A stretch of 64,000 nucleotides of DNA, taken from NCBI RefSeq assembly GCF_021172045.1, contig NZ_CP087164.1, positions 4,030,001 through 4,094,000 of the forward strand. Reading direction: 5' to 3'. Origin of the DNA: Capillimicrobium parvum. GTDB taxonomy: Bacteria > Actinomycetota > Thermoleophilia > Solirubrobacterales > Solirubrobacteraceae. Shown here piece after piece: positions 10,746-49,647 of this stretch. Position numbers and translations under genes: made by a program. The notes under the pieces are model-generated. The model was not told where the DNA came from and made no database searches. It saw nothing but the letters and a program-made list of their open reading frames with translations. The number at the start of each line of letters is the position of its first letter. Position 1 is the first letter of the stretch.

Positions 10746-11441
10746 TTCCCCGTCGGCGGGGTCGCGACGCAGGTGGAAGACCATGAGCACGACCGCGACG
10801 GCCGACAGCGGCGAGAACGCCAGCTCCACCGCCAGCTTGACAAGCACGTCGCCGATGTACTCCGGCGTGACGGTCTGCAGCAGCTCCTCCACGGCGGCGG
10901 CGACGCCGACGAGCAGCACGAGGACGAGCAGCACCCGCCAGAAGTTGCCGCGCACGAGCGCGAAGCTGCGCTTCACCGACGGCCAGGCGCGCAGGTGCTC
11001 GACCTTGACGACCGCCGGGGCCAGCGTCACGTACGTCGCGAACGCGATGCCCGGGATGACGAGGAGCAGCAGCCCCACCGCCGTCACGACCGGGATGGCG
11101 ACCTCGAGCGCGAGGATCGTCGGCCACGGCAGCGTCCGCGCCACGGCGAAGATGCCGAGCCGCGGGCCGCCCTGACGCCAGGCGATGACGGCGGCGGCGA
11201 CGAGCCCGTTGAACAGCACGTCGCCGAGCATGTGCTCGACCGTGGTCAGCAGTGCGAGCCCGCCCTTGGCGACGTCGCTGCCGGACCGGATCTCCTCGAC
11301 CAGGCCGTCGACGAGCGCGAGCGGCAGGAAGACGAGCGCGGCGGCGAGCATGAGCCACCGCCAGTGGCGCCGGTAGATGCGGAGCATCTCCGCGAACAGC
11401 GCGCGGACGTGCAGGCGCGGCTTGCGGGCGACGGTCGTCAT
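10743..11441 (-). CDS. Multi-pass membrane protein of unknown function
   Basis: I do not recognise a specific family. The 232 aa have about six hydrophobic segments, for example WLMLAAALVFLPLALVDG near residue 30, VLFNGLVAAAVIAW, LALEVAIPVVTAVGLLLLVI, VLLVLVLLVGVAAAVEELL and FSPLSAVAVVLMVFHL, with a basic N-terminus. The central WPSVKRSFALVRGNFWRVL pattern (an amphipathic helix repeat before a membrane span) resembles proteins with the DUF975 or glycerophosphodiester-phosphodiesterase membrane domain; that is only a fold-level suggestion. It sits between ndh and prmA. Confidence 0.75.
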   Translation of the reverse strand: MTTVARKPRLHVRALFAEMLRIYRRHWRWLMLAAALVFLPLALVDGLVEEIRSGSDVAKGGLALLTTVEHMLGDVLFNGLVAAAVIAWRQGGPRLGIFAVARTLPWPTILALEVAIPVVTAVGLLLLVIPGIAFATYVTLAPAVVKVEHLRAWPSVKRSFALVRGNFWRVLLVLVLLVGVAAAVEELLQTVTPEYIGDVLVKLAVELAFSPLSAVAVVLMVFHLRRDPADGE

Positions 11442-45390: not shown

Positions 45391-47421
45391 CTACCGCTCG
45401 GGCGCGATCCCCGGCGAGCGGGTGCCGACGAGCACGGTGCTGCCGGCGATCAGGCAGCGGTCGAGCGTCTCACAGGTCGCCGCGGTCATCGTCAACGGTC
45501 CGTTGATGAGGGCCGGGACCTCGTCGTACGTGTAGGTCTGCCAGTTGTTCGTCGTCGTGGCCACCGCGGCGAGCCCGCCGTGCTCGCCGCCCGCCAGGCA
45601 GATGCCGGACGCCGGGCACGTCACGGTCGCGAGGTCGGGGCGGTCGTCGACGATCAGGTTGTCGAGCAGTTGGCGCTGGCGCCAGCTGATCGCCGTCGGA
45701 TCGGCCGGATCGCTGATCCAGATCTCGCCGGCCTTCCCCACCGCGGTACAGCTCACGGGCGCCGGGCTGCAGCCCACCGCGGCCAGCGCGGAGTCCGCGT
45801 CAGCGGTCGTGTAGACCCACTGCCAGCGCGGCTTGTCGCCGGTGAGCGTCATCGTCCCGCGCAGGACGTAGCCGTCGGCGGTCGTCGCGAAGCAGGTGAC
45901 CGGGTCGGTCTTCCCGGGCACGCAGTCCATGGCCGCCGGCAGGACCGGCGGGAACGACGACTGGCTCCACACCGTCTTGGAACCGTCCAGGGAGGTCAGC
46001 GTCGCGCCGCCGACCACGGCGACGCAGAGCGTCGCGCTCAGGCAGTCCGCCGCGCTCACCCCGGCGACGTCGAACGTCGGCGGGAACAACCCGTCGAACA
46101 CCTGCAGGTCGCTCGTGGCGAGCGCGCCGGCACGTCCGATCTGCATGCAGCCGGCGGCGTCGAAGCAGCCGAGCCACTTCGTGTCCAGGCCGGAGTGCTT
46201 GTAGACGGGCGCGTTCCACAGGGTCCCGTTCGCGCGGCCCACGCCGACCGAGTCCTTGCCGGCGCCGACGCAGGTCCCCGGCGCCGACCCGGCACAGGTC
46301 ACGGCGTCCATGCCCGGGACGAGGTTGACGGCACCCCAGTTGAAGCCGACGTCGGCGCTGGCGAACCACGTCGCCCCGGCGCCGACGGTCACGCACGATG
46401 CCTGCGCACACGAGAGCGCCTTGAGGTTGAAGGGGATCGCGTCGCCGTTCGGCCGCCGCTGCCACGCCGTCGAGGACGAGGACAGCGTCGTCGTGCGGAG
46501 CACGAGCCCGGTGGCCAGGCCGACGCAGGTGTTCGCGGACGGGCACGAGAGGTCGGTGACGGTCGGCGGGGACGCCTTGGCCTTGGCCGGGAAGGTCTGC
46601 ACGTCGCCCCACGCCTTGTCGGGCAGCGACAGCGTCGCGAAGGTCCCATCGGCGCTCGTCAGGACGCAGCGCGTCGCGCTGTCGCAGGCGACGGCCAGCG
46701 GGCTGGTCCACTTGGGCCGGGGCGCGGGCGGCGTGATGCTGGTGTCGACCGCGGTGCCCGTGATCACGGCGACCGAGGGGGTCGTCGGATCGGCGAGGTC
46801 CGCTCCGGCGGCCGCCACGCACCGGCCGCGGGACGCGCAGGCGAGCTTCGTGTACGACCCCGCGGCATCGAGCTTCAGGTCGTCCCACGTGACGCCGTCG
46901 TCGGCCGAGCGCCACACGCCGCCGGTCAGGCCGGCCGCGTAGCAGACGGGCGCGCCGCCCGGATCACAGGCGATCGCGGACGCGGAGCGCGTCGTGCGCT
47001 TCGTCCTGCCCGGCAGCGTGGCCGCGGGGAGAACCCCCGAGCTCGTCCAGGTGGCGCCGGAGTCGGTGCTGCGGAACACGCGCGATGCGGCGGTCGCAGG
47101 GACCTTGCGGTCGCTCGTGACGGCCAGGCAGCGCGTGCGGCTGCAGGTGACGCTCGCCAGCGTCTCCGGATCGGTGAGGCCGACGCCCGACCAGGCCAAG
47201 GGCGCCGCCGGATCGCCCGTGGAGCGCAGGACCATGCCCTGCTGGCCGACGGCCACGCACGCCGCCGCGCTCGCGCACGACACGTCGTTGAGCAGCGGGG
47301 CGTAGTTCGTGAACGTCCACGGGGAAGGCACGGGGGGTTCCGCCTGAGCCGTGGCGGCCATTGCCAGTGCCAGCGCGGCGACCGTGGCAACGGTGGCCGG
47401 CAAGGTTGAGGTCCATCGCAT
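45391..47421 (-). CDS. Secreted Cys-hairpin repeat protein (propeller-like)
   Basis: I do not recognise a family. The 676 aa carry a signal peptide (about 1-27, TVATVAALALAMAATAQA) and 14 repeats in which all 28 cysteines occur as pairs C-x4-9-C, each in a context like DVSCASAAACVAVG, AVACDSATRCVLTS or TVTCPASGICLAGG, interleaved with BNR-like FRSTDSGATW and WRSADDGVTW blocks. This suggests two seven-bladed propellers (or a 14-unit solenoid) with one disulfide per repeat, a stable extracellular scaffold. No catalytic residues are evident. Divergent from a secreted pentapeptide-repeat gene through a shared 27-bp gap. Confidence 0.85.
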   Translation of the reverse strand: MRWTSTLPATVATVAALALAMAATAQAEPPVPSPWTFTNYAPLLNDVSCASAAACVAVGQQGMVLRSTGDPAAPLAWSGVGLTDPETLASVTCSRTRCLAVTSDRKVPATAASRVFRSTDSGATWTSSGVLPAATLPGRTKRTTRSASAIACDPGGAPVCYAAGLTGGVWRSADDGVTWDDLKLDAAGSYTKLACASRGRCVAAAGADLADPTTPSVAVITGTAVDTSITPPAPRPKWTSPLAVACDSATRCVLTSADGTFATLSLPDKAWGDVQTFPAKAKASPPTVTDLSCPSANTCVGLATGLVLRTTTLSSSSTAWQRRPNGDAIPFNLKALSCAQASCVTVGAGATWFASADVGFNWGAVNLVPGMDAVTCAGSAPGTCVGAGKDSVGVGRANGTLWNAPVYKHSGLDTKWLGCFDAAGCMQIGRAGALATSDLQVFDGLFPPTFDVAGVSAADCLSATLCVAVVGGATLTSLDGSKTVWSQSSFPPVLPAAMDCVPGKTDPVTCFATTADGYVLRGTMTLTGDKPRWQWVYTTADADSALAAVGCSPAPVSCTAVGKAGEIWISDPADPTAISWRQRQLLDNLIVDDRPDLATVTCPASGICLAGGEHGGLAAVATTTNNWQTYTYDEVPALINGPLTMTAATCETLDRCLIAGSTVLVGTRSPGIAPER

Positions 47422-47435
47422 CCGTACGATGCCGG

Positions 47436-47442
47436 TAGGTTA
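47436..47442. promoter_or_regulatory. Shared symmetric -10 element of the divergent secreted pair
   Basis: The heptamer TAGGTTA gives TAGGTT on the plus strand (7 nt before the ATG at 47449) and TAACCT on the minus strand (15 nt before the ATG at 47421). The two implied transcription starts are about 19 bp apart. Only 27 bp separate the two start codons. Confidence 0.5.
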
Positions 47443-47448
47443 CGCGGA

Positions 47449-49647
47449 ATGGAAGATAGATGGCGAGGGGCCAGGATGGCCCGGCGTCGGTTCGCAGTCG
47501 CCATCGGCTTCGCCGTTGTCGCGCTCGGTGTCCCGTCGACCGCACACGGGGCCGCCCCGTTCGTCCGCATCGACGACGCGAAGCTGACGCCCACGAGGGA
47601 CGGCGGGAAGATCACCGCCACCGTGACATGGAACCAGGACGCGGCCCGCGACGAGCGCGAGCTGGGGATCGGGGAGCTGCGCGCGGTCGCCGTCTCCGCC
47701 ACCGGCCACACCCCCACCCTGCTGAAGGCCGCCGACCCGTACGCCGACATCGCCGATCACCCGCAGCAGAAGGACGTCACGCTCGAGTTCTCGGGCGCGG
47801 ACGAGCGGGCCGCCATCCGGCGCGGCAACCGCGTGGTGCTGACGGCGAGCCAGCACTCGGAGACGCCCGGGTGGCCGCTGGCGTACGTGACGGTCGCCAC
47901 CATCCGGTCGTTCGTCACGCCGCAGGACCGCATCGGGCGCAAGGACTGCTCGGACATCGCCGTGGCGCCGGGCGCCGACCTGTCGTGGTGCGACCTCGTG
48001 GGCGCCGACCTCGACGACGTGGTCGTCTCCGACCGCTACCCGAGGTCGAAGGTCACGCGCATGCTCGTGGCCGACCTCACCGGGGCGACGATGCGGCGCG
48101 CCCGGCTCACGGGCGACAGCGTCGCCGGAGGCCGCCTCAACGGCGCCGACATGAGCGGGGCCACGATCGACAACCTGTCGCTCGCCCAGGCGGAGGCGAC
48201 CGGGCTGATCGCGCAGCGCGTCAAGAGCATCAAGCCCCAGGACGCGGGCACGGAGTGGTCCGGCGCCAACATGTTCCACGCGAGCCTCGTCCGCGCGGAC
48301 TTCAGCCTCTCCACGCTGAACAACGTGTCGGTCAGCCGGGCGCGCCTGGACAAGAGCGACTTGCACGGCTCGACGTGGGGCTACAGCGGCGACGAGGGAC
48401 TGGCGATGATCGCCGAGGAGGCGTCCCTGCGCGGCGCGGACCTCCGCAACGTGGTGGCGTTCGGGACGCGCTTCGGGCTGGCCGACCTGACCGACGCCAT
48501 GCTCGACGGCGCCAACTTCCAGGCCGCGGAGCTCGCGCTCGCCACGCTGTGCCACACGAAGACGGACCTCGGGGAGATCGACACCGGCTGCCCCGACCAG
48601 CCGGCACCGAAGCCGGTGACGCCGCTCGTCGCGGTGAAGGGCACCCTCGATCGCGAGGACGGCAAGGTCACGATCGCCGGGACCGTGCGCTGGAACGACC
48701 TCGGGCGCCGCACGTTCGACATGACCGCCGGGGACGTTCGTATCGTCGCGGTCGACGCCGCCACCGGCCGCGCGCGGGAGATCTACCGCCGCTCGGTCAA
48801 CGTCATCGGGGACACCACGCCGGTCCCCACCCAGACGATCTCCGACGCCCGCAACCTGCGGTGGCTGAGGCCGGGCAACCGCGTCGTGCTGACCGCCACC
48901 CAGCATCAGCCGGACGACCGCCCCGGCCCGTCGCTGCGCAGCTACGTGACCGTCGCGCAGCTCCAGGCCGGGCCCGGACGCGGGCGGGTCGGCAACCTCG
49001 ACTGCGCGGACCGTCCGGTGATCGCGGGCACGGCCTCTCTGGCCAACTGCGACTTCGCGGGCGCGGCGCTGACGCACGCCGATCTGGGCGCGGCGCCGAT
49101 GACGATGGCCGACCTCAGCGGTGCGATCCTCGCCCGCGCGAACCTCGACGGCGTCGTCCTGGACGGCGCCGCGATGGGGTCCGTGCGGGCCCCCAGGGCG
49201 AGCCTGATGGGCGTCCGCATGGCGAACGTCACCGCGCCCGGCATCGATCTGTCCGGGGGGAGGATCAAGGGCAACCTGCGCGCGGCCACCTTCGAGGACG
49301 CCGACTTCCGCACTGCCCGCGTGTCGTCGACGACCTTCGCCGGCACGCCGATGCGCGGAGCCACCTTCCGCGGCGCGATCTTCGACGGCCAGCGCGACAG
49401 CGGCGTCGACCTCGCCTACGCCGATCTGCGCAAGGCGGATCTCGGGGTGCTCGAGGTCGACGCGCCCAGCTCGCTGTTCATGGCGAACCTGAGCCACGCG
49501 ACGCTGAAGGGGCCCGCCAGGTGGCCCGCCGACACGTCGGGGCAGATCCCCTGGACGTGGGCGGTGCAGTGCGACACGACGCTGCCGTCCGGCGAGGTGC
49601 TCGACCGCGACTGCCCGAAGGTGCCGTCCAACGGCCGAGCGCGCTGA
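47449..49647 (+). CDS. Secreted, internally duplicated pentapeptide-repeat protein
   Basis: Exported protein of 732 aa. After a signal peptide (RRRFAVAIGFAVVALGVPS), it is two similar halves (about 35-370 and 385-720). Each half starts with an immunoglobulin-like domain (first KITATVTWNQ, second VTIAGTVRWND; both keep GNRVVLTA-x-QH and YVTVA) and ends with a right-handed pentapeptide-repeat helix (A-D/N-L-x-x units, for example ADLTGATMRRARL, LRGADLRN, ANLDGVVLDGA). Both halves carry a DCxD...CD motif at the junction, likely a disulfide. Start: ATG at 47449 lies 7 nt after TAGGTT; an internal ATG at 47476 with GAGGGG upstream is the alternative. Function unknown; pentapeptide helices often mimic DNA or form surface scaffolds. 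Confidence 0.85.
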   Translation: MEDRWRGARMARRRFAVAIGFAVVALGVPSTAHGAAPFVRIDDAKLTPTRDGGKITATVTWNQDAARDERELGIGELRAVAVSATGHTPTLLKAADPYADIADHPQQKDVTLEFSGADERAAIRRGNRVVLTASQHSETPGWPLAYVTVATIRSFVTPQDRIGRKDCSDIAVAPGADLSWCDLVGADLDDVVVSDRYPRSKVTRMLVADLTGATMRRARLTGDSVAGGRLNGADMSGATIDNLSLAQAEATGLIAQRVKSIKPQDAGTEWSGANMFHASLVRADFSLSTLNNVSVSRARLDKSDLHGSTWGYSGDEGLAMIAEEASLRGADLRNVVAFGTRFGLADLTDAMLDGANFQAAELALATLCHTKTDLGEIDTGCPDQPAPKPVTPLVAVKGTLDREDGKVTIAGTVRWNDLGRRTFDMTAGDVRIVAVDAATGRAREIYRRSVNVIGDTTPVPTQTISDARNLRWLRPGNRVVLTATQHQPDDRPGPSLRSYVTVAQLQAGPGRGRVGNLDCADRPVIAGTASLANCDFAGAALTHADLGAAPMTMADLSGAILARANLDGVVLDGAAMGSVRAPRASLMGVRMANVTAPGIDLSGGRIKGNLRAATFEDADFRTARVSSTTFAGTPMRGATFRGAIFDGQRDSGVDLAYADLRKADLGVLEVDAPSSLFMANLSHATLKGPARWPADTSGQIPWTWAVQCDTTLPSGEVLDRDCPKVPSNGRAR

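What the first reader, a model, noticed from the sequence alone, without database searches (positions are those of the whole stretch)
47449..49647. Two-fold duplicated Ig-like plus pentapeptide-repeat secreted protein, paired with the Cys-repeat protein
Each half has an Ig-like domain (GNRVVLTA-x-QH, YVTVA repeated) followed by a pentapeptide helix. Secreted pentapeptide proteins with an attached Ig-like domain are unusual; a shared promoter with the Cys-repeat protein suggests they act together at the surface, for example as an adhesion, matrix or contact-dependent pair. This is my best candidate for an undescribed two-component system in the window.
Basis: inference. Interest (0 to 1): 0.6.

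Follow-up and report, generated by a model that had tools for sequence, protein, structure and literature searches.

The report
Divergent pair of secreted repeat proteins
Two neighbouring genes that point away from each other encode two exported, disulfide-braced repeat proteins (a duplicated sandwich-plus-square-rod protein and a double seven-bladed propeller), and the two stay together in all five genomes where they were found although the surrounding genes differ, so they very likely work together outside the cell.

Summary
Window 47449-49647 (+) encodes a secreted protein of two homologous halves (34% identity, z 27). Each half is a predicted seven-strand beta-sandwich plus a pentapeptide-repeat solenoid (AlphaFold2 pLDDT 92) with a conserved cysteine pair at each end. 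Its neighbour, 45391-47421 (-), is a predicted double seven-bladed propeller with 14 evenly spaced cysteine pairs. The 27-bp gap holds the only TANNTTA in 64 kb. It reads as a -10 on both strands, with predicted starts about 18 bp apart, and is conserved in two of the four relatives. In one relative the two halves are two adjacent genes, each with its own leader; the duplication predates the split of the five. The sandwich-plus-capped-solenoid module also fronts secreted phospholipase D-like proteins in the same bacterial family. Best reading: an undescribed cassette for two exported proteins acting together, propeller as likely binder, rod as scaffold. Linkage is well supported; a physical complex and a role are inferred.

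The parts
47449..49647 (+). Gene of the two-fold sandwich + pentapeptide protein (732 aa; alternative start ATG 47476 gives 723 aa)
   Evidence: ORF; Pfam pentapeptide E 7e-29; GC3 96.5%; homologues in 4 further genomes
47476..47553 (+). Predicted signal peptide (MARRRFAVAIGFAVVALGVPSTAHGA)
   Evidence: Direct reading: basic start, hydrophobic core, small residues before the mature APFVR; equivalent leader in relatives. No signal-peptide program was available.
47554..47907 (+). Beta-sandwich domain 1 (seven strands)
   Evidence: AlphaFold2 model m84c188f0dc4e residues 1-118
47947..47991 (+). N-cap cysteine pair of solenoid 1 (C158 and C172, numbering from ATG 47476)
   Evidence: Conserved in all homologues and both halves
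47914..48528 (+). Pentapeptide-repeat quadrilateral solenoid 1
   Evidence: Pfam; AlphaFold2; VIA-align Z 16-23 to pentapeptide structures
48550..48591 (+). C-cap cysteine pair of solenoid 1 (C359 and C372)
   Evidence: Conserved
48619..48966 (+). Beta-sandwich domain 2
   Evidence: Homologous to domain 1
49003..49050 (+). N-cap cysteine pair of solenoid 2 (C510 and C525)
   Evidence: Conserved
49009..49560 (+). Pentapeptide-repeat solenoid 2
   Evidence: Pfam; alignment to half 1
49570..49614 (+). C-cap cysteine pair of solenoid 2 (C699 and C713)
   Evidence: Conserved
45391..47421 (-). Partner gene: secreted double seven-bladed propeller with 14 cysteine pairs (676 aa)
   Evidence: ORF; 28 conserved Cys; Foldseek/VIA to tandem 7-bladed propellers; profile match to GH74 propeller blades
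47422..47448 (.). 27-bp divergent intergenic gap between the two start codons
47436..47442 (.). Candidate bidirectional -10 element TAGGTTA: TAGGTT on + (7 nt before ATG 47449), TAACCT on - (15 nt before ATG 47421)
   Evidence: Only TANNTTA in the window; CGNTANNTTACG present in the gap of window, G003 and G206 and nowhere else in 82 loci; geometry

Best explanation
This is a compact two-gene cassette for two exported proteins that act together outside the cell. Shown or strongly supported by sequence: the two genes are kept as divergent neighbours in all five genomes that carry either at full length; both proteins carry export leaders (by reading) and have every cysteine conserved in pairs (8 and 28), as expected of disulfide-braced extracellular proteins; the divergent start codons lie so close that one promoter region must serve both, and in three of the five genomes a single symmetrical -10 could drive both. 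Inferred: the double propeller is the recognition part (carbohydrate or protein ligand) and the pentapeptide protein is a rigid, disulfide-capped two-rod scaffold whose two sandwich domains attach it to the propeller or to the cell envelope, so that the two form a surface binding or adhesion complex. Co-expression from one bidirectional promoter would keep their amounts matched.
For: Co-occurrence: in 61 relatives full-length matches to both proteins fall in the same 3 genomes; in 399 genomes of the class both fall in the same 3 (chance of coincidence about 1e-7 if presence were independent). The fourth (G206) and fifth (L061) genomes were found with the pentapeptide protein as query and both have the propeller gene next door in divergent orientation. 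Flanks differ: RsfS and MarR/MFS in the window; SDR and AraC in G003; ParB and GGDEF-HD in G009; methyltransferase in G206; amidohydrolase and alpha/beta hydrolase in L061. Cysteines: 8 of 8 and 28 of 28 conserved. Folds. Promoter: with about 18 bp between predicted starts, the commonest distance reported for bidirectional promoters (PMC12825309). The duplication predates the split of the five and one lineage has two separate genes. The same sandwich + capped-pentapeptide module is the N-terminal part of secreted phospholipase D-like proteins, which fits a reusable extracellular scaffold or targeting module.
Against: No interaction, expression or phenotype data exist here. Only five genomes carry the pair, at least four of them metagenome-assembled, and they may share one ancestral arrangement. 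The symmetrical -10 is absent in G009 and L061, and the pattern scan with an E. coli -35 requirement found no promoter. No anchor to the cell surface (sorting motif, transmembrane tail) was recognised in either protein by reading, so the proteins may be released rather than surface-bound.
Confidence: 0.55

Rival explanations
1. The propeller is a glycoside hydrolase or lyase (GH74-like tandem propeller) and the pentapeptide protein is its secreted binding or substrate-guiding accessory.
For: Profile of the propeller family matches GH74 xyloglucanases at E 6.5e-17 and other BNR/Asp-box glycosidases; Foldseek top hits are GH74; the sandwich-pentapeptide module is fused to an enzyme-like domain (PLD) elsewhere.
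Against: The sequence match is confined to the Asp-box blades (S-x-D-x-G-x-x-W), a motif shared with non-enzymatic propellers such as sortilin and Ycf48 (PMC2716378). Structural ranking also puts non-enzymatic propellers near the top (AIP1, RACK1). No Pfam glycosidase hit above threshold.
Confidence: 0.2
2. The two genes are neighbours by descent only: one ancestral arrangement carried along without functional linkage.
For: All five pairs have the same relative orientation and could derive from one event; the sample is small.
Against: The outer neighbours have turned over completely, the proteins have diverged to 36-50% identity, yet neither gene was found alone at full length and the tiny gap persists.
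Confidence: 0.15
3. An inter-bacterial attack or defence cassette: an exported toxin-like pair acting on neighbours.
For: Patchy distribution and changing genomic context; the module is fused to PLD-like domains in relatives.
Against: No toxin, nuclease or immunity domain in either protein; no secretion-system gene was recognised among the immediate neighbours that were checked; no match to the sandwich domain in plasmids or viral contigs.
Confidence: 0.07

Closest known systems
Pentapeptide-repeat proteins (PF00805; MfpA/Qnr, HetL, Rfr32, At2g44920)
   Same: Quadrilateral right-handed beta-helix; exported or luminal members such as Rfr32 and the Arabidopsis 3N90 protein also use a disulfide in the cap (PMC8145042)
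   Different: Two tandem copies, each preceded by a beta-sandwich domain and with a cysteine pair at both ends; exported; no gyrase-inhibitor family match above its cut-off
Asp-box tandem propellers (GH74 xyloglucanases) and Ycf48/sortilin propellers
   Same: Asp-box blades, two seven-bladed propellers in succession (PMC2716378)
   Different: A cysteine pair in every one of 14 repeats, conserved in all five homologues; the Asp-box propeller paper has no mention of disulfides or cysteines in its text
Secreted phospholipase D-like proteins with N-terminal sandwich + pentapeptide module (G007, G080, G087, G090, G091, G092)
   Same: Same sandwich domain and first capping cysteine pair followed by pentapeptides
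   Different: One short module instead of two long ones, fused to a PLD domain with HxKxxxxD motifs, no propeller partner seen
Bidirectional promoters of prokaryotes
   Same: Overlapping -10 elements on both strands with predicted starts about 18 bp apart
   Different: Here inferred from sequence only, in three of five loci; transcription from ATG 47449 would be leaderless

Membership tests
Pentapeptide-repeat protein superfamily | At least eight consecutive A(D/N)LXX-type repeats | tested here: met
   PF00805 E 7.1e-29, 6 stretches, 99 bits against cut-off 20
Pentapeptide-repeat protein superfamily | Quadrilateral right-handed beta-helix | tested here: met
   AlphaFold2 pLDDT 92.3; Z 16-23 against pentapeptide structures
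MfpA/Qnr DNA-gyrase inhibitors | Family-level score (NCBIfam cut-off) and cytoplasmic location | tested here: not met
   Scores 18-38 bits against cut-offs 240-490; protein carries an export leader by reading
Immunoglobulin-like domains | Ig-fold beta-sandwich | tested here: inconclusive
   Seven-strand sandwich predicted but no Pfam Ig hit, no solved-structure sequence match, and fold searches were filled by the solenoid
Asp-box / BNR beta-propellers | S-x-D-x-G-x-T-W motif at repeated positions | tested here: met
   Blades at 116-125 and 170-179 and profile matches; single-protein Pfam hits stay below the curated cut-offs
GH74 glycoside hydrolases | Tandem seven-bladed propellers | tested here: met
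   14 Cys-marked repeats; Foldseek to GH74 and AIP1, VIA-align Z 28.7, rmsd 7.9, 560 residues to AIP1. Model confidence moderate, pLDDT 72.7
GH74 glycoside hydrolases | Catalytic aspartate pair in the cleft | tested here: inconclusive
   The sequence alignments to 2cn3 cover scattered Asp-box stretches only and do not give a cleft-wide alignment
Bidirectional promoter | Overlapping symmetrical -10 elements with predicted divergent starts about 18 bp apart | tested here: met
   By sequence only, in window, G003 and G206; absent in G009 and L061
Bidirectional promoter | Divergent transcription from the element | not testable with these tools
   Needs 5'-end mapping

The most novel reading that the evidence does not exclude
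An undescribed obligate two-protein extracellular complex of Solirubrobacterales: a double propeller stapled by 14 disulfides bound to a two-rod, two-sandwich pentapeptide scaffold, expressed in step from one bidirectional, partly leaderless promoter and moved between genomes as a unit.
Probability: 0.35. Interest if true: 0.65.

Novelty: new variant of a known kind. Interest (0 to 1): 0.48.

Why it matters
The function of nearly all pentapeptide-repeat proteins is unknown (PMC8145042). A pentapeptide protein with a fixed genetic partner, an export leader and a fusion-prone N-terminal module gives a concrete binding partner to test, which most members of the family lack. The gap between the genes is also a clean natural test of a bidirectional promoter in a high-GC actinobacterium.

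Tried and rejected
Gyrase mimicry (MfpA/Qnr-like): rejected because the protein is exported and scores far below those families' cut-offs. Plasmid or phage origin: no match of the sandwich domain in plasmids or viral contigs. The first genome-contig scan with the single protein found nothing; the alignment-based scan found four loci. The phylum-wide search added no new carrier of the pair. Weak sandwich-profile hits in G107, G108 and G154 were out-of-frame or unrelated proteins. Hits of the full protein in many genomes at E 1e-4 to 1e-15 are pentapeptide-repeat similarity, so later searches used the sandwich domain alone. The E. coli-type promoter scan found nothing. Literature searches for this architecture or for such a divergent pair returned no relevant paper.

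Full report
Observation. The ORF at 47449-49647 on the + strand is 732 aa with 96.5% GC at third codon positions, so it is the coding frame among several long overlapping ORFs. Its two halves are homologous (34% identity, z 27 against shuffles). Pfam finds pentapeptide repeats (E 7e-29) and nothing for the sandwich part. The divergent neighbour at 45391-47421 is 676 aa, with only weak Asp-box/BNR hits.

Structure of the pentapeptide protein. An alignment of ten halves from five genomes was folded: mean pLDDT 92.3, pTM 0.90. Residues 1-118 form a seven-strand beta-sandwich (strands 5-13, 17-25, 39-47, 54-59, 71-80, 93-101, 110-118), then a quadrilateral solenoid, then a C-terminal cap. Best structural matches are pentapeptide-repeat proteins and designs based on them (Z up to 22.7). 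The eight cysteines are conserved in all five genomes as four pairs, one at each end of each solenoid (L061 has two more). Disulfide caps are known from exported or luminal pentapeptide proteins (PMC8145042).

Structure of the partner. All 28 cysteines of the window protein are conserved and form 14 pairs spaced about 46 residues apart, one per predicted blade. The model (pLDDT 72.7) matches tandem seven-bladed propellers: GH74 xyloglucanases by Foldseek and AIP1 by VIA-align (Z 28.7, 560 residues, rmsd 7.9). The family profile matches GH74 Asp-box blades at E 6.5e-17, but the Asp-box is also present in non-enzymatic propellers (PMC2716378), so enzyme activity is not shown.

Co-occurrence. Full-length relatives of both proteins were found in the same three genomes among 61 relatives and the same three among 399 genomes of the class. 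A sandwich-domain search of the order added G206, whose propeller gene is adjacent. The named genome collection gave the relatives' records (Solirubrobacterales MAGs RYN_254 and RYN_247, Actinobacteria MAG AC_64) and a fifth carrier, Actinomycetota MAG E23 bin 74, again with the divergent propeller gene. So five of five are divergent neighbours; the start codons are 27 or 54 bp apart in the window, 28 or 58 in G003 and 15 or 60 in L061 depending on the start chosen. Flanking genes are different in every case. Sequence identity to the window proteins is 36-50%, so the arrangement has outlived the surrounding gene order.

Promoter. The gap holds TAGGTTA, the only TANNTTA in 64 kb (expected 0.6). 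CGNTANNTTACG lies in the same gap in G003 and G206 and nowhere else in 82 loci. On the + strand TAGGTT ends 7 nt before ATG 47449, which predicts a leaderless transcript; on the - strand TAACCT ends 15 nt before the propeller ATG. With starts 7 nt beyond each hexamer the divergent starts would be about 18 bp apart, the commonest spacing at bidirectional promoters in E. coli (PMC12825309). L029 and L061 lack the element; in L061 a TAACAT lies 6 nt before a GTG start. This is sequence inference only.

Evolution. A tree of the ten halves separates all first halves from all second halves (100/99), so the duplication is older than the common ancestor of the five. In G009 the two halves are two genes overlapping by 17 nt, the second with its own leader and a shortened sandwich domain. 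G009 is the deepest branch on both sides, compatible with two ancestral genes later fused, although a split in G009 is not excluded.

Module reuse. Adding distant relatives to the sandwich profile found six family genomes in which the sandwich, a capping cysteine motif and a short pentapeptide stretch precede a phospholipase D-like domain with HxKxxxxD motifs; Pfam was run on two of them, the others rest on the motifs. None of these genomes gave a full-length propeller partner in the family search. The module therefore looks like a general extracellular scaffold or targeting unit that in the pair has been doubled and lengthened.

Interpretation. Secretion of both, conserved cysteine staples, conserved divergent pairing in changing surroundings and a shared promoter region make functional linkage likely (about 0.75 by my judgement). 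A physical complex, with the propeller as ligand binder and the pentapeptide protein as scaffold, is the simplest mechanism but is inferred (about 0.45). Alternatives are an enzyme with accessory, mere shared descent, and an attack or defence cassette.

Limits. Five carriers, at least four of them metagenome assemblies; the genome searches score only part of the first-look candidates; signal peptides were judged by eye; the sandwich was not searched alone for fold relatives; no expression or interaction data.

Noticed in passing
L029:8018-9999 (G009): The two halves of the protein are two tandem genes with a 17-nt overlap; the second has its own leader and a sandwich domain shortened by about 60 residues.
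   Followed up: yes
L064, L065, L075, L076, L077, L079: Sandwich + cysteine-capped pentapeptide module fused to phospholipase D-like domains in two other genera of the same family.
   Followed up: partly
L030:5773-9267 (G009 contig 37): A 1164-aa protein combining a phosphoesterase domain, a BNR/Ycf48-like propeller with cysteine pairs, a collagen-like stretch and a weak PASTA-like end.
   Followed up: no
window 47436-47442: Single TANNTTA in 64 kb, positioned as a bidirectional -10 with a predicted leaderless start at ATG 47449.
   Followed up: yes
L046 near 10900-10922: In G206 the codon at the position of the conserved ATG start is ATC; either a different start codon is used or the assembly has an error.
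   Followed up: no
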